Shown here: positions 8,128 through 49,743 of the stretch, one piece after another
Layout of the letters: each line of letters opens with the position of its first letter
How positions within the stretch are numbered: position 1 is the stretch's first letter
Assembly (NCBI GenBank): GCA_037893245.1
Contig: JBAIAA010000605.1
Span: 1,302,001 to 1,366,000 of the forward strand
DNA from: Crossaster papposus
Taxonomy: Eukaryota > Echinodermata > Asteroidea > Velatida > Solasteridae
Reading direction: 5' to 3'
Length of the DNA stretch: 64,000 nucleotides
Program-made: the position numbers and the translations under genes
The notes under the pieces: generated by a model
What the model was told of the DNA's origin: nothing
Database searches by the model: none
The model's input: only the letters and a program-made list of their open reading frames with translations

Positions 8128-8132
8128 TTCAG
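8128..8132. repeat. Target-site duplication TTCAG (right)
   Basis: Second copy of the 5-bp target duplication. Removing 345-8132 rejoins the interrupted Gypsy relic A. Confidence 0.92.
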
Positions 8133-14260: not shown

Positions 14261-14265
14261 TCGCC

Positions 14266-15485
14266 TAGCTGGCTGGCATTTTTACGACTGTTTAAAGGAG
14301 GAAACAATAATAATTTGTCCCGAGTGACAGGATAATGCACAGTTTCTCATGATTTGGCAAGGCTACAAAGGAAAGACAAAAAACATTACCTCAAATCGTG
14401 GCAACTAAAATATGTTGGGCTACGGAATAATTCATACTAAAACATTAAAGTGCTGATATCAATCTACAATGCATTTGGTGTGCAAGAAAAGTACTGGACA
14501 CCCTTTTTTAATTTTACATTATCGCTATTACAGCGAGGATAAAACGTTTGAGACACAAGGTGAACAGCACTGTTTAAGAAATTGTGTGTAGAAAAGACGA
14601 ATATACGAATTTGTCACTGTGAGCAGCAAAAGTGCTCAAAATCGAGAACTGAATTTCCTTGGGTAGGTGAGGTACACCAAGAAGTATTGGAGATGTTCTT
14701 GTTTGGTCGAGTATATTTGGTAACTTTCTGTAGTCAAACATTTTTGGAACCGCAATTCAGCCACACAAATTTCAGTAATTTAGGTTTTAAATAAGTTAAA
14801 TTATTGTACAAAAAAGAAAAATTATTGTACATGTAAATATAAAAAAAAATTATAAAAAATTACAACCTATTGTCAGTACCCTCCGACCCGAAAAGCTAGT
14901 TTGAATAGACGGGGAATCTTCTCGATACAAAATGATACCAAGATCACTTGATTCAGTCCAGTAGTTTTCATTCCAGTAGTCTTTTTCTGGAACCAAGTCG
15001 GGGGTCAGTTCGACAGTTGATTAACACAAGCTCGACAGAAAAGGCCTTTTCAATTAACCACCAACTTGGTTCCAGAAAAAGGTCCCTGAATGGTCCGTGA
15101 CCGAATCGGGCGGTCTTGGCATCATTTTTCATCTAGAAAGATTTCCCGTTCATCCAAACTAGTTTTTTCTGTTTGGAGGTTACTGGAAACAGACTGTTCT
15201 ACATTTCTTTTTATTAAAATTTTGGTTCAGGGGGGGGGGGGGGGGGGGGGGGGTGACCCTGTATAAACTAATGTTTCCCCTTTCTAAAAAAGAGCTTTAG
15301 AGGGGAAAAGGGGGGTTATCTGTAGAAAAATAACACCCGAGAGGCCCAGAATCTAAATTTGGGGTTGGAAATAAAAACAATCTGGAAGGGAGAAAAACGA
15401 GTATTTATGTTTTCTTAACTATACATGAATATAAAGAAATATCCACAGTACATATCGAACTATGGTACATTTAATTGTGCATACG
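14266..15485. repeat. Dispersed repeat family R1, copy 1
   Basis: A stretch of about 1.2 kb that recurs in the same orientation at 29786-30796 plus 31395-31565. Shared landmarks include GACTGTTTAAAGGAGGAAAC, AAAGTGCTGATATCAATC, a poly-G tract of more than 20 bases near 15230, ATAACACCCGAGAGGCC and GGTACATTTAATTGTGCAT. An inverted-repeat element (14874-15185) lies inside both copies. No coding frame. Confidence 0.85.
14874..15185. mobile_element. 312-bp palindromic MITE, family P1
   Basis: The ends are CAGTACCCTCCGACC and the mirrored GGAGGTTACTG. Inner mirrored blocks include CTAGTTTG/CAAACTAG and CTTTTTCTGGAACCAAGT against ACTTGGTTCCAGAAAAAGG. Related copies: 30400-30712, a partial copy at 39890-40030 and a diverged one at 39055-39315. 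Confidence 0.75.
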
Positions 15486-17039: not shown

Positions 17040-20000
17040 CTGTAATAGAAGAGAAATAATTACCACACTTTCCAACGGTCAGATATCATAAAAAGAGTCC
17101 CTATGTTAAAAAACTGTATGACAGTGATGTGAGTTACAGAGTTCTCGCAATTAGTTATTTCGATTTCGTTTAGGAAAGAAGCGCTAGCCAATTTTACAAA
17201 CTACGTACACAGTAGTTTTTCGAACGTCGAAAGCGAACAATTTTAATATCATTTGTTGTAAATTTTGAAAATAAAATCAGGCTACAAAGAAAAATTGATG
17301 GCGCATGCGAATTTGCAGTTGACGCCTTAATGCATAGTTCACTGTAAACACTTCTATCTCGCTGTGCTAGCTCCCTGATGTAGAAATATCATTGTGCGGA
17401 CCTTTATGAACAAGCTGAAAAAGAACTTACGAGTTTAAAATTTAGGAGTAGGGTTTCTTTAACGGGTACCCGAGTAATGGGTAACGGGCACCCGGTTTTC
17501 AAATTACCCGTAAATACACACCCCTAGGCCGTTTTTCAAACCCCTGGCTTAGGTTTCGACTCCAGCCTATTGCTAAACTGCATAAATGAAGCCTGAGACG
17601 AAGATGAAGCTGGGGTTTGGAAAACAGCCCAAGTATCAACAAGGCGAGCTGCAAAATTGGTAAAGTATGCCTGTAGGCCTACTGTTTATCTAAACAGACG
17701 AAAAAGAATGACGCGCACCTGCAAGGAGTTGGCCAGACAGAAGATGAGCTGAAAGGCGAAAGTTGCTCCTTCGATGGCCAGGAACCCAAAACACCAGGTC
17801 AAGCCCATGAGAGCGGAGATTCCCACGGCATTCTGAAGGCGTTTAGAGATCTGCTGGGAGCGAGACGCCTCCTTGACCTTCAGGAGACTGCGCATGACCA
17901 AGATGAAGGTGATGATGTTGTGGATGAGGATGAGACCAATTGGAGCAAGGAGGCCGAGGTACAGCACGAGACCGGGCTCGGGGAAGCAACTGGAAGGATA
18001 CAAACCAAAATAATCAAGAGACTGCGCATGACCAAGACGAAGGTGATTATGTTGTGGATGAGGATGAGATCAATGGTAGCAAGGAGGCCGAGGTACAGCA
18101 CGAGACCAGGCTCGGGGAAGCAACTGGAAGGATAAAAGCCAAAATAATCAAGCGACTGCGCATGACCAAGACGAAGGTGATGATGTTGTGGATGAGGATG
18201 AGACCAATGGGAACAAGGTACAGCACGAGACCAGGCTCGGGGAAGCAACCGGAAATGTGGACAAAACCATCATCTCTTTTTGAATATCACGGTCGCCTTC
18301 GCATAGTCTTTGGGGATTTTTTAAGCCAAAGTTTAGTACGTTTTTCCAGAACCCCTTTATATATACACAATTATTACCTAGAGAGAGGGCAGTTTGGTAA
18401 CTAGCTAAAACTGGATAGCGTCCACAGCAAAAAAAAAGAAAAAAAGAAAACAAGAATCAATTACTTACTAATGCTTGTTGGCATAGTGATGTGATGCCGC
18501 AGCCAAGGTGATTATTAACACAATCACTGGGGAACCTACAAATAGAGATACAAATCTTAGAGGAATTAGAGAAACAAATGGACCATTCATTGGGCGAGTT
18601 CTCTAATGACACCATTTCTGGGTACAAACACTAGAGGAAAAGATGTTTATTGAAGAATCTAATTTAAAGATTGCAAAAAGGTTATTACAGCACCCTCATT
18701 CAAATAAAAATAACCTAGCCATCACCATACGTGATACCTCCACCCATCTCAGATGGCGGAGGTTATGTCTGTCTGTCTGTCGGGCTGTCTGTCTGTCTGT
18801 CTTGGTGTCTGTCTCTCTGTTAGCAGGCTGGAAAAACTACTGGAGGGATTTTAATGAAACTTGGTGGATAGATAGCTTATGGGTCAAGGACAATTCCATT
18901 ACATTCTCAGATTGGTCAGGATCCAGATCAGGATTTTGGATCACTTTGATTTGTTTTTCACATTGGGATATTTGTTGCGGAGGTCTGCGCTCCAGCGAGT
19001 GCCCTTTATCTAGTTTAAGGATGTGATTTAATAATGAGAAGTTATTTAAAATAATGTTTAAGTCTAGACTTACCCCAAGCGATGAGGCAAGCCTTGACCA
19101 TGTATCGAGGCGTATCTTCTGGGAACACCTTCACCGTACTGACGTACATGTTTCTGGCTTCAACAGCCATCCACATCATAGTGGACAGAGTCAGGTAGTG
19201 GAGTAAAGCAGCCACAAACGCACAACCACCTGTGGTAGCCTTTTCAAATTGAAGCAGAAATATCTTGAGAATTAAACTGCAAGTATGTTACAATATCAAA
19301 TGAAAATGTAATTTAAGAGTGTTAAAACGAATCTTTTCCAGAAATTGCAACAACTTTGTAGAGTTGCAACTCACAAAAATTTGCTTAGCACAACAAATTG
19401 TAGCTCAGTAAAAACAGCTTACCAGCCAAAACTGCACAAGCTTTTCATGCTAAGTAAAAAACTCAGTCACGAACAATATACATCGACTGAAAATTGGTTT
19501 GTAACCTTGTTTTTGCCAAGGAAGAATTTTCATGCTAAACAATTTGTTTGTGCTGAGCAGCTTCGAGAAATTGGCCTTATATGGACACAAGCTTTAGTAC
19601 CCCTTAAACTCATTTTAAAAGATGTGTGGTGAAACTTGTTGTAAAACTCTTTCACCTTAGCATTGTCAACACCAGCGAGGAACACAATGTACAACATGAA
19701 CAAGGAAAAGCAGAAATGGATGAAGATCTGGCGAGATTTGCCACTTCGCAGTTTCCTAAACAAAGATAAAAGGTGTAGTTGATTTGTTAATGTTAACATG
19801 CTTTATACAGCAACAAGAAAACACAGCAATGCAGTGGTTAGTAAAGCACACAGCGAAACAGTGTTGGGTTGACATTTGTTTATCATGTCATTACAATTAT
19901 CTTACCTGATACCTAGGTATATAATCAGCGTGATAGCCAGAGCTATGATTGACAACGCACAGCCAACCTGGCTGATGATATCAAGCGCTCGTTTAGCAGA

Positions 20001-29489: not shown

Positions 29490-29785
29490 GTTTTTCTTTA
29501 TTTTGTTACAAAACACTCCAAAGGGTAAAGTATCGTCGAAAACATGCACCAGCGTTGCTCCTTACAAGTTGGAAAATAAGGAAGTAATTTGCAGTCAAGC
29601 TCTTATAAGCATTCCACCCTCGGTGTCACGACCAGCACATGACAATGTATGGTACATGTATAAGGAAGGTCAATGCCAAAGTTGACTTTACAATGTTTTG
29701 CAATCCCAGAGTGAAAGTTGGCCTCCTTGACATGAACATAAAACATAAAACATACAGCTCCCAATTTCCTTGTTGGTCTGGCCAG
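29490..29785. other. 5' flank of the GPCR gene
   Basis: Presumed promoter and 5' UTR side of the minus-strand gene. I see no clear TATA box or CpG island here. Confidence 0.4.
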
Positions 29786-31565
29786 CTGGCATTGTCATTT
29801 TTACGACTGTTTAAAGGAGGAAACAATAATAAATGTTTTTCCCGATTGACAGGATAATGCAGACAGATAATCATTTGGCAAGGCTACAAAAAGAAGAAAA
29901 AAAGCCCATTACCTCAAATCTTGGCTAGTAAAAGAGTTGATGGGCTATGGAATAATTCATACTAAAACATTAAAGTGCTGATATCAATCTACAATGCATT
30001 TGGTGTGCAAGAAAAGTACTGGACACCCTTTTTTATTATACATTATCGCTATTACAGTGAGGATAAAATGTTTGAGACACAAAGTGAACACTGTTTAAGA
30101 AATTGTGTGCAAGATGAATTTAAAGTAGAATAGACCAATTTGTCACTGTGAGCAGCAAAAGTGCTCAAAAAATCGAAAACTGATTTTCCTTGAAAAGGTA
30201 AGAAGTATTGGAGATTTTCTTGTTTGGTCGAGTATATTTGGTAACTTTCTGTACTCAACAATTTTTGGAACCGCAATTCAGCAACACAAATTTCAGTAAT
30301 TTAAGTTTTAAATAAGTGAAATTATAGTACACAAAAAAAGTGAAATTATTGTACATGTAAATATAAAAAAACTAAAAAACAAAAATTATGACCCATTTTC
30401 AGTACCCTCCGACCCGAAAAAAATAGTTAAAATAGACGGGAAATCTTCTCGATACAAAATGATACCAAGATCACTTGATTCAGTCCAGTAGTTTTCATTC
30501 CAGTAACCTTTTTCTGGAACCAATTCGGGGGTCAGTTCGACAGTTGATTAACACAAGCTCGACAGAAAAGGCCTTTCCAATTAACCACAAACTTGGTTCC
30601 AGAAAAAGGATCCCTAAATGGTCCGTGACCGAATCGGGCGATCTTGGCAAAATTTTTCATCTAAAAAGATTCCCCGTTCATCCAAACTAGTTTTAATGTT
30701 CGGAGGGTACTGGAAACAGACTGTTCTACTTATTATTATTATTTTTTATTTGGGGGGGGGGGGGGGGGGGGGGGGGACCTTGTATAAACTCGAGTCTAAA
30801 AAAGTGGCCAGGGAAAATCTCTTTAATTGGTTAGGCGACATTATCTCCTTATGACATCTTGAGACACGCACAGTTTCAAGTTCATGTATACAAAAAAAAA
30901 AAATGCTGTACAAAACTACAATGTACATGACGTGCTACATGATGTGTTTATTTCCTCCCCAGATAAGAGGAAGACATGCCTTCCACGCGAGTATAGATCC
31001 GGGTGTATGAGTTGATCCCGCACCATACCACTCTCTCAACTTGGCTATCAGTTTGAAATAAAAACAAGCACTGCTCGGAACGTCTAAACTCGAACACTGA
31101 AAGAGGAAAGGAAAGCTTGTGTGCGTTTGTTTATGGTGTAAGTGGAGGACACATGCCTGGCGACACAAAGGTGAATTTGGGTTAGAATCGAGGACGTCCT
31201 CGACTGAGATTCGTGTACAAAACCAATGAGAGCCGTCGAAAAAAGTTAGAGTACAAACAAAGGAAATTATCGAGAGGAACAAAAGAAACTCAATTTACAC
31301 CATAAACAAACGTACATGTACATGTACCAACATTGTATACGTACTGTGGCCTAGAAACGAGAGAGGAAACAGATTGTGGACTTGCACACGTCCACAGTCC
31401 CCCTTTCTAAAAAAAAAAGCTTTAAAAATGAAAAATAACACCCGAGAAAACAATAACACCCGAGAGGCCAAGAATCTGAATTTGGGGTTGGAATTTTGTT
31501 TCTGGAAATGAGAAAATTGAGGAATTTCCACAGTACATACATGTAGAACTAAGGTACATTTAATT
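29786..31565. repeat. Dispersed repeat family R1, copy 2, interrupted
   Basis: Matches 14266-15485 in the same orientation from 29786 to about 30796, including the palindromic element (30400-30712) and a poly-G tract (30751-30776). It is interrupted by about 600 bp of other DNA and resumes at 31395-31565. The inserted part contains 31085-31290, which recurs inverted at 44676-44862. Confidence 0.85.
31085..31290 (-). repeat. Repeat R2, copy 1
   Basis: Inverted relative to 44676-44862. Shared blocks: CTCTCATTGGTTT, GTACACGAATCTCA, GTCGTCCTCGATTCTAACCC or near-identical, TTCACCTT, GTGTCGCCAGG, ACACCATAAACAAACG. Confidence 0.8.
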
Positions 31566-33222: not shown

Positions 33223-33677
33223 CTATAAACCGTTGTTATCAGGTTCCTTCTTACGTTGTCTCAACTCTTCTCCGTCTGGCACTAATGGTCGGCTAGCTCC
33301 CTCCGCTAGCATTTCAGATACTTCTCTACTCTCAACGCCTTCAGGATCTCTGACTGCAGGCTCTTCCTCCTCCCCAGCATCATCTTCAACCTCATTTTCT
33401 AGCATTCCTGCCTCTCCTTGCGTCAACGAGGCCTCGTCTTGTGGTTCCCCGGGGCTGTTAGAGTCAACCTGATCAGATTGAGGGGCTGCAACCTCCCAAC
33501 CTGTGTCTGACGACCCCTCGCCATTGGTCGCCCTGACTGTGTCCGTAATGGAGGAGCTTCGGTCGCCAGTGGACAGCCCATCAACACTGCTGACACCTGA
33601 ACTCTGAGAATCACGATCATCCTGGAAGCCCCTCTGGCTGATGACGGTGACATTATTTGGACGGCCTCGAAGCAGAG
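33223..33677 (-). CDS. BSCL2: Seipin exon 8: cytosolic tail
   Basis: [20 protein letters not shown], then a Ser/Glu/Asp-rich disordered tail with [15 protein letters not shown] and a terminal [10 protein letters not shown]. Poorly conserved acidic tails with a LRQR end also occur in vertebrate seipin. Confidence 0.9.
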
Positions 33678-36600
33678 CTAAAGACAAAACCCAGAAATCA
33701 GGGTTTTACAGATACATTTGTAATAGCGGTACCTAACAGTTTGATGTCCTCTCTCCAGCTTGCATTGTCACAGATTTTTAAGCACAGCTTTGACAAAAGC
33801 TACACTTTTTGTATGTTGTCCTTTTTGTTCAAGTGATAAAGTGTCAGTAATTACAGGCCTTTTCTTTTAGGGGGTGGGGGGTGGGGGGGGGGGGGGGGGG
33901 GTGGGAGTAAGTGCACTTTGACCTTGAATGAAGCAAAATTATTGAGGGCACCAAGGCCAGTACGTAGGGCACCAAGGATAAATTATATCTGGAGTAAGGG
34001 CACAGAGGCTAAAATTGAAATATTTGTACGCATGTGCAATGCATTAATTAGACTTATCATACTCTGCCTTATCAGATTCCCGTGTTCTCAAACTTTGAAA
34101 ATTAAAGGTCGGGGGTGGGGGTTGCGGGGGTGGGGCGGTATCGTAAGTCCGACGCCTCGTAAGTCCAATGCCTTGTAAGTCTGTCGCCTCATAAGTCAGA
34201 TGCCTCATAAGTCCAATGAGGCGTCGAACCTATAAGGTGTCGCACTTATGGACTATTGCAATAAAAGGTGGATTTGTGCAACAAGGCAAGAACTAGTTTA
34301 ATTAGAAGTTCATGCCCCCCCCCCCCCCCCCCTTCCTCTCCCCTGGTGTTCACCGACTCGATAAATCTACTTGACTTCCAGTGTTTTTGAACTCATTGTA
34401 CCCAGACATGCAGTTGAGTTTTTCGTTATTTAAAACACAAGGTAATGGTATAAGACCCAATTTTACACTCAAAACATGAACACAATTTTGACGTAAAAAT
34501 GTGCTGTAACAAAACATTGCTTGGAGACTGGACTTATTTACCTACACTGTACATATACTGTAACACAATATCAAACAGGTGGAACCAGACTAATGTGTAT
34601 ACTGAGTACCACCTCGTTCCCATTCATCGAGCGCTCTGTCGCTACAAGTGCAATGCAATCATTTTGACTACGAGGTCATTTTGCATGACATTGCTTTTAG
34701 GTTGCTGTGGAATCGCGAAGCTACATTATGTTGTGCATACTGTACATCACTGTACGCATGCCAGCGTTTAATGTTAACGATACGTGCAGCGAGAAAAACA
34801 AAATACAAATGAAATCAAGAATTGTAGACAGTAATATTTGTCCCGTGGATGTTTTTTTCTGCAAAAATGAAAAAACTGGCCCATTATTTTTAGTGGGGCA
34901 CCTCGGCCAGTAAAAAGGCCCTGACGAAAATGGCCGTCGTTCAATTCAAGCCCTGTAATAACTAAGAAAATACCTCTTGACTGCATTGCCTGCAGTTTTC
35001 TTTGTGTATTTATCAATGACCATGAACCACACTCGAACCCCAACCACACGCCTGCCATACCCACCCAAAATACAGTGTCCAAAAAATTGAATGAAATGAA
35101 ATATAGTGGAATGCTAAACATAGAATTAGAATGTGCAAGGGTATATATAGGTATGGTATAAAAGATACATCTTTCCACTTTAAAATTAAATATCAAACGT
35201 CCAAATCTGGTAACTTTTCACAGAGTTATGAGTAATTTCCCAAGACAGTTCAAATTTGACCATGGGATCAAGTTTTCAATTTTAGGCATTTGTACAAAGG
35301 TAGCCTATTTGCCTCTGTGGATAATTGCCTGGCCTTCACTGCAGGAGCAGTAAACAACATCCATGTTAAACATGTTTACATGCTTAGGATGGATAGTGTT
35401 TAGGCATTGAATATTGATGTTTAGGAATTGGCCGGACACGTGCGTTTAACTGCAAATTAGCAACAACCACATTTGCGTATTCAAATAAAATTGAAAAACT
35501 TGGTCTCAATGTCAATTTGACCTCTGCTTGGAAATCACTCACAACTGTCCAAAAATATCAGATTTTGACATTTGATGTCTCATTTTAAAGTGGAACAGTG
35601 TATCTTTCTAACCATACCTATATTATCTATGTTGGTTACACATTCTACAAGTGGCATTCCGTTATATTTTGTTTGCATTTTTTTGGAGACACACTGTATG
35701 TACATCTACCTGAGTGTCCGATACCATGCTTTTTTCAATTACCTTCCCGTGTTCCTCAATGGCCACAAAGTGCACTGTGACTACACCCGTGCCCCACCCA
35801 CAACTACCTGTTTGTTAATGCCTGCTCTTTTTAATGATCTTCCAGGATCCCTCATTGGCAAAAAACTACGCCCATGTCCAAACCCACTCTGTGATCACCC
35901 CTGCCCCGCCCACCTATCTGTATATATACATGTATCTACCTGCTCGTTCGGAGGCCATGCTCTTTCTGATCATCTTCCGGCGGTCCTCGTAAGACAGCGA
36001 ATTCACTTCCTCGAGTCTGACCACGGTCTCCTCATCTTGGCTGGAGAATGCCCCAGTGCACTGTTGCCACGACACCACGGTGACCAGAGACAGAAAGAGG
36101 AAGAAGGTGGATATGAAGACAAGAGCCGTGCTGAATGGCCACCGGTACATCAGATACCTGAATGAATAACAACAATTACTGCTGATCAGAGCCGTGCTGA
36201 ATGGCCACTGGTACATCAGATACCTGAATGAATAACAACAATTACTGCTGATCAGAGCCGTGCTGAATGGCCACTGGTACATCAGATACCTGAAGGACAA
36301 ACAACAATTACTGCTGATCAGAGCCCTGCTGAATGGCCACTGGTACATCAGATACCTGAAGGAATAACAACAATTACTGCTGATCAGAGCCCTGCTGAAT
36401 GGCCACTGGTACATCAGATACCTGAAGGAATAACAACAATTACTGCTGATCAGAGCCCTGCTGAATGGCCACTGGTACATCAGATACCTGAATGAATAAC
36501 AACAATTACTGGTGATCAGAGCCGTGCTGAATGGCCACTGGTACATCAGATACCTGAAGGAATAACAACAATTACTGCTGATCAGAGCCCTGCTGAATGG

Positions 36601-39600
36601 CCACTGGTACATCAGATACCTGAAGGAATAACAACAATTACTGCTGACCAGAGCCGTGCTGAATGGCCACTGGTACATCAGATACCTGAAGGAATAACAA
36701 CAATTACTGGTGATCAGAGCCCTGCTGAATGGCCACTGGTACATCAGATACCTGAAGGACAAACAACAATTACTGCTGATCAGAGCCCTGCTGAATGGCC
36801 ACTGGTACATCAGATACATGAAGGAATAACACCAATTACTGCTGATCAGAGCCCTGCTGAATGGCCACTGGTACATCAGATACATGAAGGAATAACACCA
36901 ATTACTGGTGATCAGAGCCGTGCTGAATGGCCACTGGTACATCAGATACCTGAAGGAATAACAACAATTACTGCTGATCAGAGCCGTGCTGAATGGCCAC
37001 TGGTACATCAGATACCTGAAGGAATAACACCAATTACTGCTGATCAGAGCCCTGCTGAATGGCCACTGGTACATCAGATACATGAAGGAATAACACCAAT
37101 TACTGCTGATCAGAGCCCTGCTGAATGGCCACTGGTACATCAGATACCTGAAGGAATAACAACAATTACTGCTGATCAGAGCCGTGCTGAATGGCCACTG
37201 GTACATCAGATACCTGAAGGAATAACAACAATTACTGCTGATCAGAGCCCTGCTGAATGGCCACTGGTACATCAGATACCTGAAGGAATAACAACAATTA
37301 CTGCTGACCAGAGCCCTGCTGAATGGCCACTGGTACATCAGATACCTGAAGGAATAACAACAATTACTGCTGATCAGAGCCCTGCTGAATGGCCACTTGT
37401 ACATCAGATACCTGAAGGAATAACAACAATTACTGCTGATCAGAGCCCTGCTGAATGGCCACTGGTACATCAGATACCTGAAGGAATAACAACAATTACT
37501 GGTGATCAGAGCCGTGCTGAATGGCCACTGGTACATCAGATACCTGAAGGAATAACAACAATTACTGCTGATCAGAGCCGTGCTGAATGGCCACTGGTAC
37601 ATCAGATACCTGAAGGAATAACAACAATTACTGCTGATCAGAGCCCTGCTGAATGGCCACTGGTACATCAGATACCTGAAGGAATAACAACAATTACTGC
37701 TGACCAGAGCCCTGCTGAATGGCCACTGGTACATCAGATACCTGAAGGAATAACAACAATTACTGCTGATCAGAGCCCTGCTGAATGGCCACTTGTACAT
37801 CAGATACCTGAAGGAATAACAACAATTACTGCTGATCAGAGCCCTGCTGAATGGCCACTGGTACATCAGATACCTGAAGGAATAACAACAATTACTGGTG
37901 ATCAGAGCCGTGCTGAATGGCCACTGGTACATCAGATACCTGAAGGAATAACAACAATTACTGCTGATCAGAGCCGTGCTGAATGGCCACTGGTACATCA
38001 GATACCTGAAGGACAAACAACAATTACTGCTGATCAGAGCCCTGCTGAATGGCCACTGGTACATCAGATACCTGAAGGAATAACAACAATTACTGGTGAT
38101 CAGAGCCCTGCTGAATGGCCACTGGTACATCAGATACCTGAAGGAATAACAACAATTACTGGTGATCAGAGCCCTGCTGAATGGCCACTGGTACATCAGA
38201 TACCTGAAGGAATAACAACAATTACTGGTGATCAGAGCCCTGCTGAATGGCCACTGGTACATCAGATACCTGAAGGAATAACAACAATTACTGCTGATCA
38301 GAGCCGTGCTGAATGGCCACTGGTACATCAGATACATGAAGGAATAACACCAATTACTGCTGATCAGAGCCCTGCTGAATGGCCACTGGTACAACAGATA
38401 CCTGAAGGAATAATATCATCATATTAATGTCATTCTTCCTGCCCTTTTGGTTTACTACTCGCAAGTACTCAACTACTCGAGATTAATTTCCTTGCGAATA
38501 CCCGAGTAGGAAAATCTACTACTCGCCTAGCACTTATAGTTGAGGTTTCAAATTTTGTTTAATTACTTACCTGAGTCCTGTGAAGTAAGCTTGGATCTTG
38601 AGGATGGAGGAATAAATCTCTAGTTGTCTTGCTTGAAGTTCAACGCATGCTCCAATCATTGGTTTGTACTGTCCATGTAAACAATGACGTACAAAAAGTC
38701 AATTCGTAATAGAAACAGAAATACTCATGTGGCTACACGTAGTTACAAAATTACAGTTCTGGCAGAATTTATTTTTGCCATTTTCGTATCTCAAGTGAAA
38801 AAAAGAAGTTTGTCACAATCTAACACAGATTATAATATTGCAGCCCTGTGGAGACAGTGTCCGCTCAATTGTCCAAATTACTCACAATAAATACATGTAG
38901 GCTTTTTGACCTTATTCTTGGAAGAAGTGGATGCTGCATAATAAATCAATCAAATAGGAAATAAAAAAACATATGGTATCAAATAAATTACTCACAACTG
39001 TTTTTTTTTTAAAGTGTTTTTTTAAATCAAATTTGTTTGTCTAAATCTGTCAGGTTTCATCAGGCTCTCCAGTACGTGTCATTGCTCGAACAATCATTTG
39101 TCTGGGACAATCATATACCGAAGGGCCTCCTATACTCGTTGTTAGAAGATCTCTTCCAAATGGTACATTATAAATGATGGATTTGACGTAATCCTGGTCT
39201 ATTGGTGTCAAGTCCGGTGTCAAGGCCTGTCCAATTGACCACTGACGTGGTTCAACAAAAAGATCCTCAATGGACCGATCCGGCCTGTCAATCACTACGC
39301 GCGCATTGACCAATAAGATTACGAGTTTTGTTCAGGTACCTTAGCAACGGTTGCTACAGGCGTGGTCCGCCATTAGCTCGGTCAAACTATCACATTGTGG
39401 TTAGAAACGTGTACACAAACAAATGGCTTCGGTACGAAAAAGCACCGTATTTGTCAATCAAAATACGGCTGTATGGAGTTTAAAAAATTGTCAAAAATAT
39501 GCATGAAATGGTCATGAAATATGTAAATAACACGCTGGTACTCGGATTATGACATCATTTTTTCCCCGTTAAATACCAAAACAAACCTCGAAAATGAGAA

Positions 39601-42600
39601 TTATCGTTGAACTCGTGTGACGTGAACGGCGGGAATGTCAAGAACTTAAGATAAACAAGGTCAAGGACAGTGCAGTCTAAGGTAGGATAGGGGCCTATGT
39701 AGAGTTAGTAGTAATAATCTACATGTATAGCAGTCTATTAATTAGGCTAAAGTTTAAATCAACATTTTCGTTGTACGTGTTCTACGCCTAGCCTAGCGTA
39801 CATAAGTACATGTACATGTACGTACGTGTGTGCAACTTGACCGAGGTAATGGCGTCGCCATGCCGTTGCTAAGGTGGGCGGGGCTTATGGTCAAATCCGG
39901 ATCAGTCCATTAAAACTACTGGACCAAATCGGGTAGGCTTGGTATCTTTTTTTTAAATCTAGAATTATAAAGATTCCCCATTCATCCAAACTAGTGTTTC
40001 TGGTCAGAGGGGTACTTAAAATAGGCCGTTCCTGTTTTTTGGTGACCACCCTATATATTGGATTTGTGATGTCACTTACCGGGTTGTCAAGGTAATTTTC
40101 CATCAAGCTGACCATGATGGTCTGTTTCTCTTCACTGTACCCCGTCAACAACAAGGGAATAAAGAATAACGTTTGGATAGTTTTCAAGAGGTTGGACTGG
40201 TAGTGCAGCATAGCCTAAGAGACAAGAAAAACAATAATATCAAGTTATACGCAGAAGAAAATTGCCTGTTACTTGAGCTAAAAAGCCCAACTTTTCAAGC
40301 CACTCACATTTTCTCCACTCCTACTCTCTCCCCCCAAAACCACTAATAAACTTAACTCAGAGTAATTAATAAGAACAGTTTGAATTAATATTTAGGTTTT
40401 TCATTACCGTCCACGCTGATTTTTACACCGCCATATTTGTTTATTTTATATATTTTTGTGCAAGTTTGAATTTTTTTCTCAATAACGTGTATTTTTCAGA
40501 CAAAATTTTCCACCAAATTCACAGGTGACTTTGGTTTCCGACATAATAAGCAAGTTTGATAGTGATACTGATATTAGTCTCCTCATAAAAATATGGAGAA
40601 ATTCGTCATGTACATTGTACACTGCCATTATAAAAATACATACAAAATACAGTATACAGACACAAAATATTATCAATTAATATCAATTAAACAGGAACAC
40701 AAACCAACACCAGGATGACAAACACAGCACTAAAATCATTGACAATACCCAACTATCTGTATCTGTACTTGTGATAAATATTGTCAAACCCAACAATTGA
40801 AGTGGAAACGAGCAACTTATTGAAAACAAGTTGTACGAGTGCAGACAGTCCTAAAATGTTTTCCTGAAGGAAGTTTTATTCACTGCATGCATGCCATCAT
40901 ACACTGGTTCTCACTGCTAACAGAACGAACAACTACAAAGTATGTTCAAACTTTGACAGCGTTGAAGATCTCAGGAAAACAGCATTGAAACCCGATGATA
41001 CCGGTATATTCAATGAGGTTTTCTGAGTTACCATCTTTTGGTATAGGTAGTTTTTGCATCAGGGTATAACAATAAAAATGTTAGTTCTTATATAGCGCTT
41101 TAGACTCCCACAATATGGGTGTATCAAAGCGCTTTACAATTATTATCCCCGTTCACAAGGAACGAGAGCATTTCTGCAGCAGCTCAAATCAGCGCATGTG
41201 GTCTCTACCTTCACAGGTACCCATTGATGCTCCTGGGTGGAGAGAGGCAATTGTAGCAAAGTGTCTTGCCCAAGAACACAAGCACCATGTTCCATCCAAG
41301 GGTTCGAACCCACGTACGGTACTATCGTACAGGAGTCAAACACCAGAACCACTGGACCACAGCGCCCCAGAGTAGTGAAAGTATGCCTGTTCAGTTTTTG
41401 TATGGGCAATGCTAGTATACATGTATGTAAATGTAGCTACATATGTATTCCTTGAGAGAAACGATACTCTACTCACTGGACGTGATGACGATGCTGTTAT
41501 TTCACCACCAGCGGCATAGAGATCCATTTTCACCATAAATACACCTGTATATAAATATATTGCATTTTTAAATCTTCAAGTAGCACTTATAAGGCATGGC
41601 ATCTGAATTTTAAATATAAAATGCATAACTTTTTCAAATTCTCAAATTGTGACTGGTCTTAGAAAGATGAAAAGAAATGTCAACGATATCATTACTTGCA
41701 TCCCTAACACTCCTTCAGTAATTTACTGGGAATATTCTTCACTCTTGCAAAACCAAGTTCCATATAGTACTTGTACATGGGTCATTCCACCATGTGACAT
41801 TAATATTCATAAGTACTATTACAGTAGACTAGGAGCAAAGTTGTGAAAGCCCTGTAAATAAGAATTTTGCTCAACACCTACTACATCCAAGGTTTGACTT
41901 CACAATATGGAAGAACATACCCTACTGAACACTGCTAGGTAGTATGTGGCTTCAAATTGTGGTATCACTTTTGAGAAAAACTTGGTTTTTGAGGGTAAAA
42001 AGTTGGCATTGTTATTAATTTGGCACCAATTGTTAGTAAACAGTCTAGTCATATATTTAAAAAAAAAAAAAAAAAAAATGCTTATATCTTAATATCTTAT
42101 ATAAATTATCACAACTATCATTTAAATATTTTTTACATTTCATTTTTATAAAGTACATACTAAAATGTGAAATAATTTTGAAATAAGAAAAAAGAAAACT
42201 TGTACGAGGCTACTACATGTAATCCCGTTTTGGTTTTTTTAGTTTTTTTTAAAGGTTATCTTTTAAAGGGGCGTGGCCACGCCCCTTTGTCTCCTTAGAC
42301 CATAATTATTATTTTTTAGCCAATGAGGAACATTTGAGTCATGAACTCATTAAACAGCATCATTTGCATGAACAAAAGTGATGTTTATATGCTTTCATTG
42401 TGTCAAACTTATCTTAATTTTTTTTTTTTTATTATTTTTTATCAAATTAATTTTTTTGTAATATTTTTTGATAGCAGCGCTAAATTTATACCACAATTTG
42501 AGTCCACATACTACCTAGAGATGTTCTACTAGGTCTATTCCACCAGATAAAGCAATCGAACCTTAGATGTAGTGAGAGTTGAGCACCCACTTTTTTTTTT

Positions 42601-45600
42601 GGTCCGTGCTCCTAGTCTACAGTTGATTCAGTTATTTCATGTAACATCAGACTTTAAAGGTTTTGAATCATGTAAATTATATATTACCAAAAATGTGATA
42701 AAAAAATGTGTCATTTTGACGTAACCAACTTACATTGGACAAGTCTATATTTCATTTTTCTTCTTATTTTTTATTATGGTATTCAATATCCAAAAGCAGC
42801 ACAATTTTCACACAACATTTGACCTTATTCTTTTTCCAACATCACAAACAAAGATGAACATAAACAAATTGCCAAATTCCTTACAATTGAGGCAAAATGA
42901 GCCGCGTTCGCATTGGACTTAATATTGTCAAAAGTTACCGTACGTGATTGTCAAAGTTAACGGTGTTAAATCCTCCGCTAGAAGCTTGGGCCTGTAGATC
43001 TTACTGTTGTGGAGGGTAAAATGGACGATTTGACAATGTTAACCTCTGTCCGCATTGGATTTAATTTGGTTAAAGTTGACAACAGTCTCCGTAGGTTTTA
43101 CCAAAAAAAGTCCAATGCGAACGCGGCTATGTACTGTATGATTTCACTTACCCTGATTTTCATTGATTGGAGACTGGGGCATTTCTAGTTCTAGGAGAAT
43201 CCAATATTTCTGGCCTCGCATCAGAAGCTATGCCAAAGAAAACAACTGTCCTCAATTAAAATGATTACAAAAATTAAATGAGTCAAGTAAGCAGTTATCT
43301 TCCACCCGAAAATGTCTTTTTATTTATTTATTTTGTTTAAATTTTGTATAAGAGTGTTTTGTAATAAAAGAAAACACATCATGTACATAGTGAATGTGTA
43401 AAAAATAAAAACACCTAAACACTGAAACTAAAAAGCTGTTTTTAGTTTGTATTTTGGTTTTTTTGGGGGACACGTTATGTATGCAAACTTTACAGTATTG
43501 TATTGAGAATTTTATTCTCTTTCCTAATCCTCATTTTAACCTCTGCTCATCAAGTTCTGTCTCATTTGGGCAGAATGAAAATCCAGTATTTTCGTAATCC
43601 AGTATTGGCGCGGTTACCCGGCGGTTAACCGGCGGTCACCCTGCGGTCACCCGGTGGTCACCCGGCGGTCACCCGGCGGTCACCCGGCGGTCACCCGGCG
43701 GTCACCCGGCAGATACTTAGCAGTTACCCGGCGGGTACCATTGGGTAACCAGACAGTTCTTATATCGCGCAAGTATCTACCAAGTTGATGAGAATACGAG
43801 ACCTATTATGTAGCAGCTTTGTAAGTGTTTTTACAAGGTGTTGCAGCGCACTTTGCAGCCACTGACAGGAACACTGGGGCAAACATTATTTTATTTTACT
43901 GGGTTCTTTTACGTGCATTACACAACACACGGGACCTACGACTTTACGTCCTATCCAAAGGACGAAGCAATAGTGGTTAAGTGCCTTGCTTAAGGAAACA
44001 TGTGTCAAGAACAAGACTCGAACCCAAACTCTGCTGATCAGAAACACCAGAGCTTGAGTCCACGTACTCTTAACCACTCAGCCATAACACCCCTCCCCCT
44101 GTATGTACATGTACCTAAAAACTTAAATTCCTGAGATTCCAGGATCACATTGACCAACACTATCATAACTATAGGGGAGGGTGGAGTTTTCCTTCTGTCA
44201 AATGTATCATTGCTGACAAAAGATGCAGACACGGTATTCCAGTGAGCTCTAACAAGACGACAATTAGACGTTTTGACTTACGCTTGCCATATCAGGGTCC
44301 CTTAAAGTTGAATTCACACTGGGGAAGGGACAATTCGTTTGTGCACCAAACTCCCTGCAGGAACTGTGGAGAAATGAGACAAAAAAAGCGGTGACTTTTA
44401 ACTAGTTTTTGTAGCACGGCACACTCACGGCAACTCTTTCTGACTGTTAGACAGAATTAAAAACAATGGGCCATATGAATAAAAATAAATTATCCATCGC
44501 AAGTGTCGCCTTTTCCAGCGGTCAAATTTTGTGCATGTTTAAAGGACGACCTCAAATAACCCCTCGTACAATCGGAGGAATGTCTTCCAACCCAAGGATT
44601 AAAACCCATGAAGGCATGTAGAAGTAATATATTTTGTAATACTTAATAACCTGTGATTTAACCTGTGATTTTCTTTGTTCCTTTCAAAAATTTCCTTTGT
44701 TTGTACTTTTTCAGACGGCTCTCATTGGTTTAGTACACGAATCTCAATCGAGGTCGTCCTCGATTCTAACCCTAACCCCAATTCACCTTCGTGTCGCCAG
44801 GTACAGTATAATGTCCTCCATTTACACCATAAACAAACGCCAGTTCACATACATGTAAAGGGTAATTCTGAATGTCAACAGGAATTTGTTCTATACGGCC
44901 ATGAACTGAGAGAGTACCAGCAACTAAAATGTATTACTGATAGTTACAAATGCCTGTAGCAATGGTAGCACCAAGAATAAAACCCACACAATTCAATTGT
45001 GAAGGATAGTTTCATGTGGGACTTGTCTGTATTAAGCTGTGAGGAAACAAAGTTGAGGGCATTAAACAATATTATTTTTATTTATTATTATTTCTTTTTG
45101 GTAATGAAACCAAGGATCTCTCAATAGCGCCCAAGGCACTTTAGCTCACAAGCCTGAAGAAACCTGTAGAGAGAAGACAATGAGAAGAACGTACAGTTTT
45201 AGAGGTGGGAGGAAAACCCCAGAAGAATATTCTGGGATATACCCAGCACGATATGTGGCAGAGGGGTACCCCCCTCTTATCCCTATACTTTATACGCACT
45301 CAACACTATTGTAACCTAACCCACCCCCCCCCCCCCCCTTGAACCCAATCCAGATTCAGGCCAGATTCGAACCCGGGTCGTAGTGGTGAAGGGCGAGGAA
45401 AGAACCGCTACGCCAACTTGACATGTTAACGCAGTGAGCATTTCCATCTCGTATAGTTCTGCAAACATTGGGGAAACTGTTCGAAGTAATGAATTTGTTT
45501 TTCTCACATTGATGGAAAGTGGGATTGTAGGAATTGTGGCAGCACACCCCCCCCCCCCCCCCCCCCCCCCCCCATTTTTGTTTCCACTTGGGGGATATGG

Positions 45601-46883
45601 CTAGGGGTGTAACGATACCACTTTATCACGATATACGTATCACGATATACGTATCACGATACACGTATCACAATACGTATCGTGCAAACAAACAAAAACA
45701 CAAATAAAAAACAAACAAGAAAACTACCCGAAACCACTACCAAAAAATAGACAAGTTTCTGAATTTAACTTTCAAATTCAAGTTTCGTTTCAACAGAAAA
45801 TGAAAATAAATGCATTATGTGTACACTGGCCAGAGTCCATCAATGCAATGTGCCTGTAATGAGTTGAACAGCTATACTGATGACAATTTATTTCTGAAAT
45901 ATCATTGTTAAAAATTTTTTTTTATTAAATTATTTTTATACAGCACATATCGCCTCTGCACGCAGCCGCAGCAACAGCCACAGTGCAGCTTGTGCCATCT
46001 TATGAAACAGCCGTAGCTAACCCTGCAACCGAGCCGCTTGTTTGTTTTTTACCATTCGCGCGCGCGATACACTATGACCTGTGACATCGCAGAGCACCCC
46101 CTCCCCCGTATAGTGGTACAGTTGGCATGCACCATCCAGTTTAATGCAAATCATCATGGCGAACACCAAGAGTGCAGTACTCGGTCGAATACTGTCGTGG
46201 AATTTCCTGGACAGGTCAAGAATAAAGTACATGCATATGACGTCACACGCACGTCGCACTTCACGACAGCGCCCCCAATGAGGTCTTTGCGTAATCACGG
46301 TAATGCACCGTCTGCACTTTGTTTGACCTCAATAATGGCCGCTCGGCCCTGTTGCTAGTGTATTAGCGCGTACGCGTAGCGCGCGTAACGTCAATGCAAC
46401 CCCTTTAATTATTGATCGTGAGTACCCCCAAAGCCCTGGAAGTTGATCCTGGACAAATATCGAAGGCTATAATTTAGACAATTTTGAGGTATTTTGTTAA
46501 GTATTGTTGTGGTTTTGGCGACCTTTGTTTATTGTTTTGGTGTGGGGCCCTAGTGTAGTATTAGTAGTACGGCAAGCTAAATCAAAAATTCGGGTCTAGT
46601 CTATTTTTAATCGGATTTTTAATTTAATTTAAACAGGAAAATAACAAAAAAGTTCAGCAAACCTGAATTGCAAATAGACAGGGCTGATATGCGAGACTGT
46701 AGGCATGTAGGCGTAGTAGAAACTGCCGTACAGAAAGACCGAGAGCCATAACTGCAGTGTTGCGAGCACCAGGATCGCAATCACTTGGAATGCCGTGCTT
46801 TTGAGCCAAGACACCCATCGGTCGGTTCCTCCCTGCACGGTCTGGACAAGTTGGCTTGCCTTCCTCCGCAACACCGAAGACAT
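33223..46883 (-). CDS. BSCL2: Seipin (BSCL2), 8 exons
   Basis: The ATG at 46883 and stop at 33223 give 1353 coding nt, 450 residues, over eight phase-consistent exons. The first exon encodes [15 protein letters not shown], nearly identical to vertebrate seipin. The luminal domain follows with [41 protein letters not shown] and [19 protein letters not shown], collinear with the human protein. TM2 is in exon 7 and the last exon is an acidic disordered tail ending in a basic patch. Seipin forms oligomeric rings in the ER at lipid-droplet contact sites and controls droplet assembly. Human length is 398 or 462 residues, so size fits. The exon 7 acceptor is embedded in a 34-unit 66-bp array that is in frame with the gene, so longer isoforms are possible. 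Confidence 0.94.
35073..35696. mobile_element. About 624-bp mariner-type inverted-repeat element
   Basis: The ends CAGTGTCCAAAAAATTG and the mirrored TTTTTTTGGAGACACACTG are flanked by TA. The arms are similar over about 120 bp (ATATAGGTATGGT, AAGATACA, TTCCACTTTAAAAT). No transposase; lies in seipin intron 7. Confidence 0.75.
35940..36157 (-). CDS. BSCL2: Seipin exon 7: TM2
   Basis: [30 protein letters not shown] (TM2), then the cytosolic [20 protein letters not shown]. The acceptor used for this boundary (TTCATTCAG|GTATCTG) is the last of the 35 related junctions. Using an upstream one adds multiples of 22 residues before TM2 without breaking the frame. Confidence 0.9.
36158..38403 (-). 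repeat. 66-bp VNTR, 34 units, each over the seipin exon 7 splice acceptor
   Basis: Each 66-bp unit (22 codons) contains, on the minus strand, the first codons of exon 7 (MYQWPFS), a diverged hydrophobic stretch ([12 protein letters not shown]) and a copy of the acceptor TTATTCCTTCAG|GTATCTG. No unit contains a stop codon in the gene frame, so the array is one open frame of 748 codons joining exon 7. Four unit boundaries have ATG for AGG and lack the AG. Units 7-12 and 13-18 are nearly the same six-unit series, showing higher-order duplication. The outermost acceptor (38402-38403) abuts unique intron sequence and is probably the ancestral one. The translated 826-residue frame is not a separate protein. 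Confidence 0.92.
38571..38668 (-). CDS. BSCL2: Seipin exon 6
   Basis: [33 protein letters not shown]: the last luminal strands leading into TM2. Donor CTCAG|GTAAGT, phase 2. Confidence 0.93.
39055..39315. mobile_element. Diverged palindromic element of family P1
   Basis: CTATTGGTGTCAAGTCCGG, AAGGCCTGTCCAATTGACCA, GACGTGGTTCAACAAAAAGA and ATGGACCGATCCGG match the central part of 14874-15185 loosely. The 87-residue open frame here is a by-product. Confidence 0.5.
39890..40030. mobile_element. Half copy of palindromic family P1
   Basis: CCAAATCGGGTAGGCTTGGTA, ATTCCCCATTCATCCAAACT and GAGGGGTAC match the right half of 14874-15185. Sits just 50 bp downstream of seipin exon 5. Confidence 0.7.
40080..40214 (-). 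CDS. BSCL2: Seipin exon 5
   Basis: [40 protein letters not shown]: the conserved membrane-proximal hydrophobic helix that binds triglyceride in the ring. 45 codons, phase 0-0. Confidence 0.93.
41075..41385 (-). mobile_element. tRNA-derived SINE family S1, copy 2
   Basis: The minus strand reads GGGGCGCTGTGGTCCAGTGG (A box) and GTGGGTTCGAACCC (B box), then AACATGGTGCTTGTGTTCTT and a CGCTTTACA/TATAGCGCTTT tail. Homologous to 24172-24546. Confidence 0.78.
41477..41544 (-). CDS. BSCL2: Seipin exon 4
   Basis: [23 protein letters not shown], matching the vertebrate GMFLVTISCYTRGG block. 68 nt. Confidence 0.92.
41821..42622. mobile_element. About 800-bp inverted-repeat element
   Basis: Arms of about 150 bp: CAGTAGACTAGGAGCA, then CTAGGTAGTATGTGG and CAAATTGTGGTAT on the left, all mirrored on the right (42485-42622). 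The centre is A/T runs. No coding frame; in seipin intron 3. Confidence 0.78.
42900..43128. mobile_element. 229-bp MITE with 3-bp ATG duplication
   Basis: The ends AGCCGCGTTCGCATTGGACT are mirrored exactly. ATG flanks both sides (42897-42899, 43129-43131). Ends 24 bp from seipin exon 3. Confidence 0.8.
43152..43227 (-). CDS. BSCL2: Seipin exon 3
   Basis: [20 protein letters not shown] then INENQ: beta strands of the luminal sandwich. The acceptor is GGCATAG|CTTCTG, fixed by phase and by alignment to the vertebrate LMYGQPYRV. Confidence 0.92.
43610..43735. repeat. 11-bp minisatellite (GGCGGTCACCC)
   Basis: About ten units, diverging at both ends to GGCGGTTACC-like forms. Intron 2 of seipin. 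Confidence 0.88.
43884..44100 (-). mobile_element. tRNA-derived SINE
   Basis: The minus strand starts GGGGTGTTATGGCTGAGTGG (A box), has GGGTTCGAGTC (B box) and continues ACATGTTTCCTTAAGCAAGG. Confidence 0.75.
44282..44363 (-). CDS. BSCL2: Seipin exon 2: luminal CPFP loop
   Basis: [20 protein letters not shown]: the paired cysteines correspond to the conserved C...CSFP of vertebrate seipin. 82 nt, ends in phase 0. Confidence 0.92.
44676..44862 (+). repeat. Repeat R2, copy 2
   Basis: Inverted copy of 31085-31290 (TTTCCTTTGTTTGTACT, GACGGCTCTCATTGG, GTGTCGCCAGG, ACACCATAAACAAACG). In seipin intron 1. Confidence 0.8.
45340..45445 (-). mobile_element. tRNA-related SINE fragment
   Basis: The minus strand reads TTGGCGTAGCGGTTCTTTCC and GACCCGGGTTCGAATCT, an A-box/B-box pair with tRNA-like spacing. 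Borders unclear. Confidence 0.6.
46663..46883 (-). CDS. BSCL2: Seipin exon 1: N-terminus and TM1
   Basis: [11 protein letters not shown], then [18 protein letters not shown] (TM1) and [20 protein letters not shown]. Donor TTCAG|GTTTGC, phase 2. Confidence 0.95.
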
Positions 46884-48189: not shown

Positions 48190-49743
48190 GTATGTCCTAT
48201 GTACCGTGCGAGGCACCCTTCCTATGCCTGTTACCTATGTACCGTACGAGGCACCCTTCCCCTAGGCCTGTTACCTATGTACCGTGCGAGGCACCTTTCC
48301 CTATGCCTGTTACCTATGTACCGTGCGAGGCACCCTTCCCCTATGCCTGTTACCTCGTGCGAGGCACCCTTCCCCTACGCCTGTTACCTATGTACCGTGC
48401 GAGGCACCCTTCCCCTAGGCCTGTTACCTATGTACCGTACGAGGCACCCTTCCCCTACGCCTGTTACCTATGTACCGTGCGAGGCACCCTTCCCCTAGGC
48501 CTGTTACCTATGTACCGTACGAGGCACCCTTCCCCTAGGCCTGTTACCTATGTACCGTGCGAGGCACTATTCCCCTAGGCCTGTTACCTATCCATCATGC
48601 GAGGCACCCTTCCCCTAAGCCTGTTACCTATGTACCGTGTGAGGCACCCTTCCCCTAGGCCTGTTACCTATGTACCGTGCGAGGCACCCTTCCCCTAGGC
48701 CTGTTATCTATGTACCGTGCGAGGCACCCTTCCCCTAGGCCTGTTACCTATGTACCGTACGAGGCACCCTTCCCCTAGGCCTGTTACCTATGTACCGTGC
48801 GAAGCACCCTTCCCCTATGCCTGTTACCTATACATCATGCGAGGTACCCTTCCCCTAGGCCTGTTATCTATGTACCGTGCGAGGCACCCTTCCCCTAGGC
48901 CTGTTACCTAGGCCTATGTACCGTGCGAGGCACCCTTCCCCTAGGCCTGTTACCTATGTACCGTGCGAAGCACCCTTCCCCTATGCCTGTTACCTACACA
49001 TCATGCGAGGTACCCTTCCCCTAGGCCTGTTACCTATGTACCGTGCGAGGCACCCTTCCCCTAGGCCTGTTACCTATGTACCGTGCGAGGCACTCTTCCC
49101 CTAGGCCTGGTACCTATCCATCATGCGAGGTACCGTACCCTTCCCCTAGGCCTGTTATCTATGTACCGTGCGAGGCACCCTTCCCCTAGGCCTGTTACCT
49201 ATGTACCGTGCGAAGCACCCTTCCCCTAGGCCTGTTACCTATGCATCATGCGAGGCACTCTTCCCCTAGGCCTGTTACCTATGCATCATGCGAGGTACCC
49301 TTCCCCTAGGCCTGTTACCTATGTACCGTGCGAAGCACCCTTCCTCTATGCCTGTTACCTATACATCATGCGAGGTACCCTTCCCCTAGGCCTGTTACCT
49401 ATGTACCGTGCGAGGCACCCTTCCCCTATGCCTGTTACCTATGTACCATGCGAGGCACCCTTCCCCTAGGCCTGTTACCTATGTACCGTGCGAGGCACCC
49501 TTCCCCTAGGCCTGTTACCTATGCATCATGCAAGGCACCCTTTCCCTATGCCTGTTACCTATGTACCGTGCGAGGTACCCTCCCCCTAGGCCTGTTACAT
49601 ATGCATCATGCGAGGTACCCTTCACCTAGGCCTGTTACATATGTACCGTGCGAGGCACCTAGCTCCCCCTAGGCCTGTTACCTATGTACCGTGCGAGGCA
49701 CCCTTTCCCTATGCCTGTTACCTATGCATTATGCGAGGCACGA
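48190..49743. repeat. 40-bp minisatellite, about 38 units
   Basis: Unit: CCTGTTACCTATGTACCGTG followed by CGAGGCACCCTTCCCCTAGG. Variants alternate TGTACCGTGCG, TGTACCGTACG and TRCATCATGCG; one unit is internally deleted (48354) and one has an extra CTAGGCCTA (48910). Many short frames inside (RARHPSPRPVTYVPC) are translation of the repeat. Confidence 0.95.

What the first reader, a model, noticed from the sequence alone, without database searches (positions are those of the whole stretch)
35940..38410. Seipin gene with a 34-fold tandem array of splice acceptors in frame with TM2
The 3' border of seipin intron 6 has been amplified as a 66-bp (22-codon) unit. Each unit carries a branch/pyrimidine/AG acceptor and the first codons of exon 7, and no unit has a stop in the gene frame. 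Splicing to the outermost acceptor would insert about 748 residues of semi-hydrophobic repeats between the luminal domain and TM2; splicing to the innermost gives a normal 450-residue protein. Every choice between preserves frame. This could yield a ladder of seipin isoforms, length-polymorphic between individuals, in a protein whose TM2 position matters for lipid-droplet assembly.
Basis: partly seen in the sequence, partly recalled or inferred. Interest (0 to 1): 0.88.

Follow-up and report, generated by a model that had tools for sequence, protein, structure and literature searches.

The report
Repeated splice acceptors in sea-star seipin
In what appears to be a sea star, the DNA at one intron's end in the fat-storage gene seipin has been copied about 34 times in a row, so the cell faces some 31 near-identical places to cut the message; the normal protein is still encoded, and whether longer in-frame versions are ever made is an open question that a simple RNA test would settle.

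Summary
The array is real in the sequence. Minus-strand seipin (450-aa canonical protein, Pfam Seipin; nearest protein Patiria miniata, so probably a valvatid sea star) has a 66-bp minisatellite of 34 full units at the intron 6/exon 7 border. Each unit is 36 nt of exon 7 plus 30 nt of intron tail. The gene frame is open throughout (748 extra residues from the outermost acceptor).

Correction: 31 of 35 junctions keep the AG and 28 also have a branch-like motif; four read CAT.

The open frame is no evidence of coding: two of six frames of the unit are open, copy-to-copy changes look neutral (few, low power), the insert would have 63 Cys, 54 basic and no acidic residues, and none of 14 aligned seipins shows it. 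Best reading: an acceptor-spanning tandem duplication expanded as an intronic VNTR, with mainly canonical splicing and possibly in-frame leakage.

No RNA data were available.

The parts
46663..46883 (-). seipin coding exon 1 (from ATG), TM1
   Evidence: exon model; protein alignment
44282..44363 (-). seipin exon 2
43152..43227 (-). seipin exon 3
41477..41544 (-). seipin exon 4
40080..40214 (-). seipin exon 5
38571..38668 (-). seipin exon 6, ending ...FTGL(R) with donor CAG|GTAAGT (12.61 with a recalled frequency matrix, best of the 7 donors of the gene)
38402..38570 (-). 169 nt of intron 6 upstream of the outermost acceptor; TTAAT branch-like motif 22-23 nt before that acceptor
36158..38401 (-). 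34 full 66-bp units between 35 acceptor-like junctions (36157+66k); 31 junctions keep AG, 28 keep AG and a yTnAy motif (27 of them CTGAT at 29 nt, the outermost TTAAT); the 31 live junctions read CAG|GTATCT
36817..36817 (-). dead junction (CAT|GT); others at 36883, 37081, 38335
35940..36157 (-). seipin exon 7 (218 nt), innermost acceptor at 36157; codes (R)[19 protein letters not shown]..., TM2
33223..33677 (-). seipin exon 8, C-terminal tail and stop
17880..18254 (-). second acceptor-spanning array (TRF span): three exon-like starts at 18248 (no AG), 18123 (AG) and 17989 (AG), about 134-bp unit, out of frame, at an adhesion-GPCR-like exon

Best explanation
A tandem duplication copied the last 30 nt of intron 6 with the first 36 nt of exon 7 of a sea-star seipin gene, and the array grew to 34 units by unequal exchange or slippage. 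It is in essence an intronic minisatellite that happens to carry a working-looking splice acceptor in most units. Most seipin mRNA is expected to be the canonical 450-aa form, because exon 7 is defined as a 218-nt exon between the innermost acceptor and its own downstream donor (inferred). Because the unit is 22 codons without a stop, occasional use of the next acceptors would add 22, 44 or more residues after GLR without an early stop (inferred). The array is tolerated for that reason, not selected for a product (inferred). Shown: anatomy, frame, number of live junctions, higher-order unit pattern, no visible constraint, absence from 14 aligned seipin proteins. Inferred: choice of acceptor, leakage, polymorphism.
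For: Array and frame. Unit is exon head plus intron tail. The canonical join matches 14 aligned seipins without a gap at R|Y. Ten variable positions among 34 units; with the adjacent double change TAT->TTG counted once, 9 changes: 8 nonsynonymous, 1 synonymous, 0 stops, as expected without constraint (P of 1 or fewer synonymous 0.48, P of no stop 0.60). AG lost at 4 junctions. 2 of 6 frames of the consensus unit open. 14 unit types in a mosaic with a 7-unit block repeated at a lag of 6 units; 0 of 2000 shuffles as long. Insert has 63 Cys, 54 K/R, no D/E, no sequon. Two protein searches with repeat-containing queries found no relative (about 8000 candidates scored in each). The second acceptor-spanning array is out of frame, so that gene, if it works, must use its innermost acceptor.
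Against: With a rough matrix of recalled base frequencies, 26 of the 30 other AG junctions score higher than the innermost one (10.0 or 9.74 against 8.68), 2 equal, 2 lower. Equal use would leave only 3% canonical mRNA, and a length penalty with a 100-nt decay leaves 48% (toy model). So a mainly canonical output needs strong exon definition, trimming or another aid that is not visible in the sequence. Rules of splice-site proximity (recalled) would favour the outermost acceptor, 169 nt from the donor. The six other introns are 1.05-2.3 kb, so both intron and exon definition are possible. The Patiria miniata hit is labelled isoform X2; an X1 was not among the hits, so an insertion in a relative's other isoform is not excluded. 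The constraint test has 9 changes only.
Confidence: 0.6

Rival explanations
1. Isoform ladder: acceptors along the array are used in earnest and give a population of seipins of 450 + 22n residues with a repeat between GLR and TM2, varying with array length.
For: 31 AG acceptors, 28 with a branch-like motif, all frame-neutral and none with a stop; 26 score above the innermost; the outermost lies only 169 nt from a very strong donor.
Against: No visible purifying selection on the peptide; insert acid-free, basic and Cys-rich; sits at the switch region, whose deletion or shuffling leaves yeast seipin unable to complement growth and able to rescue lipid droplets only partly (PMC8930772, passages); no repeat in 14 aligned seipins and none found by two capped searches. 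No RNA evidence either way.
Confidence: 0.2
2. Ratchet array: the pre-mRNA is first spliced to an outer acceptor and then trimmed, because each junction CAG|GTATCT regenerates a donor that can be joined to any later acceptor. The array is removed in multiples of 66 nt, leaving the same final junction whatever the path.
For: 31 junctions read CAG|GTATCTG and 4 CAT|GTATCTG; the regenerated donor scores 5.71, inside the range of the gene's own donors (4.47-12.61); re-splicing that removes 54 nt is reported for one fly gene (PMC8184009, passages), and annotated exons with such a start are in similar proportion from sea urchin to human (PMC6224609, section 15 read).
Against: +4T and +5C make it a weak donor: 29 of 745 GT sites in the rest of the gene score as high, six of them the gene's own donors. 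The exon junction complex represses regenerated donors in human cells (PMC6224609, passages; that paper saw no such effect in fly cells, PMC8184009 did). AG|GT also follows simply from the Arg-Tyr codons at this border. MaxEntScan was not available.
Confidence: 0.12
3. Assembly artefact: the copy number, or the array itself, was inflated in assembly.
For: Another block in the window is duplicated at 99.93% identity (345-1870 and 6604-8129), which may be a false duplication; a 7-unit run of unit types recurs exactly in this array.
Against: 14 distinct unit types in an irregular mosaic; 2.3 kb is well within a long read (the sequencing method is not known); exon and intron flanks are coherent.
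Confidence: 0.08

Closest known systems
ABCA7 intron 18 VNTR (human), PMC5954066 (passages, part of the abstract among them)
   Same: A minisatellite whose unit carries a real splice site of the flanking exon; tens of units (about 12 to about 427 reported); retention of one unit observed.
   Different: There the unit (25 bp) carries the donor and retention shifts the frame; here the unit (66 bp) carries acceptor, branch-like site and exon head, and retention keeps the frame. Polymorphism and RNA are known there, unknown here.
[quoted passage not shown]
   Same: A tandem duplication that crosses an intron-exon border, so acceptor, pyrimidine tract and branch site are copied with the exon head.
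   Different: One extra copy with an RNA-confirmed new intron there; 34 copies and no RNA here.
Recursive splice sites / RS-exons held down by the exon junction complex, PMC6224609 and PMC8184009 (passages; section 15 of the first)
   Same: Acceptor and donor juxtaposed (AG|GT) at an exon start.
   Different: Those described there are sites at single exons; here 31 in a row at multiples of 66 nt, with a weak donor, and no evidence of use.
Expanded in-frame internal repeats of the human morpheus/NPIP genes, PMC2812944 (outline and sections 10 and 11 read)
   Same: Minisatellite of 57-69 bp, up to 39 copies, transcripts differing in copy number.
   Different: There repeats lie in a coding exon and transcripts support it; here the unit contains an acceptor and is intronic in the canonical mRNA.

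Membership tests
Seipin (BSCL2, PF06775) | Seipin domain above Pfam's cut-off | tested here: met
   206.5 bits against a cut-off of 25
Seipin (BSCL2, PF06775) | TM1, luminal domain, GLR of the switch motif, TM2, matching solved seipins | tested here: met
   phmmer to four distinct PDB seipin sequences, best 4.9e-62; hydrophobic segments; G225 and R227 invariant in 15 sequences, the Leu between is Ile in two
Splice-site-carrying VNTR (ABCA7 type) | Repeat unit contains a splice site of the flanking exon | tested here: met
   31 of 35 junctions keep AG
Splice-site-carrying VNTR (ABCA7 type) | Copy number varies between individuals | not testable with these tools
   one sequence only; mosaic order suggests turnover
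Splice-site-carrying VNTR (ABCA7 type) | Array changes the mRNA isoforms | not testable with these tools
   no RNA data available
Intron gain by tandem duplication | Duplicated segment crosses an intron-exon border | tested here: met
   36 nt of exon 7 plus 30 nt intron tail
Intron gain by tandem duplication | Absent in relatives | tested here: inconclusive
   no insertion in 14 aligned seipin proteins; genomic DNA of relatives not available
Recursive splice site | Juxtaposed acceptor and donor dinucleotides | tested here: met
   CAG|GTATCTG at 31 of 35 junctions
Recursive splice site | Donor strong enough by MaxEntScan; splicing intermediates seen | not testable with these tools
   only a recalled frequency matrix used: 5.71
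Coding protein repeat (morpheus type) | Peptide under constraint | tested here: inconclusive
   8 nonsynonymous, 1 synonymous change, as neutral; no constraint seen, low power
Coding protein repeat (morpheus type) | Homologous repeat proteins known | tested here: inconclusive
   none at E 0.001 in two searches, each of which scored only about 8000 candidates

The most novel reading that the evidence does not exclude
A natural ratchet array: 31 AG|GT sites through which the spliceosome can enter anywhere and which it then erases in 66-nt steps, so array length stays invisible in most mRNA. In-frame acceptor-spanning arrays may be free to expand in this genome while out-of-frame ones (the three-copy GPCR array, whose outermost AG is dead) stay short. 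If so, acceptor-spanning tandem duplication is a recurrent, frame-filtered route to new introns and isoforms in sea stars.
Probability: 0.12. Interest if true: 0.8.

Novelty: new variant of a known kind. Interest (0 to 1): 0.52.

Why it matters
It is a ready-made competition experiment. About 31 nearly identical acceptors stand in a row before one exon of a gene of lipid-droplet formation, every outcome is in frame, and the choice can be read directly from cDNA. The result would say how strongly exon definition beats proximity in this animal, whether AG|GT arrays are trimmed, and whether seipin tolerates insertions at its switch region. The second array in the same 64 kb suggests that duplications of this type may recur in this genome.

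Tried and rejected
Coding ladder as a selected feature: not taken as best reading, for want of visible constraint on the peptide and for its composition. In one search I had counted 10 changes (9 nonsynonymous); the recount is 9 (8 nonsynonymous, 1 synonymous), which changes nothing in the verdict. The double change TAT->TTG, taken base by base, passes through a stop in one of its two orders.

Open frame as evidence: rejected, 2 of 6 frames open, expected about 2. A plus-strand frame is open through most of the array as well (643 aa). Its two Pfam matches (Paramyxo_NS_C, MbtH) exceed the whole-protein cut-offs but have no single stretch that passes, and I take them as repeat artefacts.

RNA structure: a 296-nt piece folds somewhat better than shuffles (z -2.86), largely by pairing between units; not pursued.

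Source of the 30-nt intron tail elsewhere in the window: its first 20 nt match 34 places with up to 3 mismatches, all inside the array; matches of the unit outside it were 12 nt or shorter among the 15 printed.

Long-isoform relatives: searches with the 1198-aa isoform and with a 217-aa repeat-plus-exon-7 piece gave nothing. Each scored only about 8000 candidates, so they are weak negatives.

Papers: ten searches used. In the rows shown (capped lists) I saw no title or abstract start about an in-frame acceptor VNTR. One search found 0 papers. One search listed 8 of 2,119 papers, none holding the word seipin. Most subscription papers are not held. PMC8605326 was seen in outline only and is not used.
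Full report
WHAT IS THERE. The window carries a seipin gene on the minus strand. I modelled eight coding exons by splice consensus and the seipin reading frame; they join without an internal stop into 450 residues that match Pfam Seipin at 206.5 bits (cut-off 25) and four distinct solved seipin sequences (best 4.9e-62). The nearest proteins are from Patiria miniata (79% identity), Acanthaster planci (73%) and Asterias rubens (49%), so the source is probably a valvatid sea star, nearer to Patiria than to Acanthaster; the species is not known. In an alignment with 14 other seipins there is no gap or insertion at the exon 6/exon 7 border, where FTGLR meets YLMYRWP. The Patiria protein is labelled isoform X2; its X1 was not seen. 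The GLR belongs to the conserved motif of the C-terminal switch region. Deleting or shuffling the switch regions leaves yeast seipin unable to complement growth and only partly able to rescue the droplet phenotype (PMC8930772, passages; the paper prints the motif as FxxGLR, here it reads F-T-G-L-R).

THE ARRAY. Tandem Repeats Finder reports 36122-38413, 66 bp, 34.7 copies, 97%. On the gene strand a unit is GTATCTGATGTACC...GGCTCT, the first 36 nt of exon 7, followed by 30 nt of intron tail ending TTATTCCTTCAG. There are 35 junctions, at 36157+66k. AG is kept at 31 of 35; k=10, 11, 14 and 33 read CAT. A yTnAy motif lies at a fitting distance before 32 of 35 junctions: CTGAT at 29 nt, spanning the duplication joint, or in the outermost its own TTAAT; it is missing at k=7, 17 and 23. 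So 28 of 35 junctions have both AG and motif. The 34 units between the outermost and innermost junctions are open in the gene frame: 748 residues, so isoforms from 450 to 1198 aa are possible on paper.

IS IT CODING? The signs are against it, none of them decisive. Two of the six frames of the consensus unit are open, about what chance gives (0.35 per frame). Among 34 units, ten variable positions, with one adjacent double change counted once, give 8 nonsynonymous changes, 1 synonymous and no stop. The neutral expectation is 77% nonsynonymous, 18% synonymous and 6% stop; P of 1 or fewer synonymous is 0.48 and P of no stop 0.60. No constraint is seen, but nine changes cannot exclude it. The insert would hold 63 Cys, 54 Lys or Arg and no acidic residue, and its best hydrophobic stretch is far below that of TM2 (0.36-0.56 against 2.41). 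Two protein searches with repeat-containing queries gave no relative, though each scored only about 8000 candidates.

HOW IT AROSE. Fourteen unit types lie in a mosaic order; the longest repeated block is 7 units at a lag of 6, against a mean of 2.2 in 2000 shuffled orders, none of which reached 7. This is what unequal exchange or slippage leaves in minisatellites (inference). The two nearest relatives, Patiria and Acanthaster, have Gln where exon 7 here has Arg before WP, and the repeats have Gln or Lys, not Arg, which suggests that exon 7 changed after the array began (inference). The outermost intron tail resembles the repeated one only near the AG.

WHICH ACCEPTOR IS USED? Not known; no RNA was available. 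With a matrix of recalled base frequencies, the innermost acceptor scores 8.68; of the 30 other live junctions 26 score higher, 2 equal and 2 lower. The seven acceptors of the gene model run from 4.06 to 12.1. Strength therefore does not pick out the normal site. Position can work either way: exon definition favours the innermost (218-nt exon), proximity favours the outermost (169-nt intron) (both rules recalled). In a toy model, equal use leaves 3% canonical mRNA and an exon-length decay of 50-400 nt leaves 73-16%, while proximity rules leave under 1%; these numbers illustrate, they do not predict. If this gene is to make normal seipin, exon definition or trimming has to be strong, or the animal tolerates insertions. 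My commitment is mainly canonical splicing with some in-frame leakage (0.6).

First, each live junction reads CAG|GTATCTG (31 of 35; the rest CAT|GTATCTG). As a donor it scores 5.71, within the range of the gene's own seven donors (4.47-12.61); 29 of 745 GT sites in the rest of the gene score as high, six of them being those donors. Three units also hold a CTG|GTCAGC site at 5.3. A message spliced to an outer unit thus carries a regenerated donor facing further acceptors, and removal of n x 66 nt would leave an identical junction. Re-splicing of short stretches is known: 54 nt in one fly gene, seen with cDNA constructs that lack the exon junction complex (PMC8184009, passages). Annotated exons with such a start are in similar proportion from sea urchin to human (PMC6224609, section 15). 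Against it, the complex represses such sites in human cells, and the site is weak. The two papers differ on whether this repression acts in flies. Second, a further array in the window, 17880-18254, is of the same kind. Its unit of about 134 bp is the last 28 or so nt of an intron and about 106 nt of an exon that matches Pfam 7tm_2 (25.5 bits, cut-off 20.6) and adhesion receptors in the PDB (best 6.2e-6). Of three exon-like starts, the outermost (18248) has lost AG, the middle (18123) has AG and scores above the innermost (17989), 9.5 against 7.92. Use of the middle one would shift the frame to a stop after 80 codons. I read this as a second, independent duplication over an acceptor; it shows that frame is not needed for such an array to exist at a few copies. 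Whether that receptor gene works is not known.

COMPARISON. The closest relatives are the ABCA7 VNTR, whose units carry a donor, and the potato gene in which one duplication across an intron-exon border made a new intron. This array differs in carrying the acceptor (from ABCA7), in copy number (from potato) and in being frame-neutral (from ABCA7). I file it as a new variant of a known kind.

VERDICT. The structure is unusual enough, and the test easy enough, to be worth doing.

Noticed in passing
17880-18254, minus strand: Second acceptor-spanning tandem array (about 134 bp, three copies, out of frame) on an adhesion-GPCR-like exon; outermost AG lost.
   Followed up: yes
345-1870 and 6604-8129: 1526-bp direct duplication at 99.93% identity; recent duplication or false duplication in the assembly.
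   Followed up: no
48196-49741: 40-bp minisatellite, 38.5 copies, about 1.3 kb upstream of the seipin start codon.
   Followed up: no
14263-15269 and 29781-30790: About 1-kb dispersed direct repeat at 88% identity, perhaps a mobile element.
   Followed up: no
50105-50908, minus strand: ORF pieces that look by eye like a transposase (recalled resemblance); no Pfam match at E 0.001 for the two pieces tested.
   Followed up: partly
8388-8791: 140-bp, 2.9-copy GC-rich array with ORFs of over 100 aa on both strands; nature unknown.
   Followed up: no
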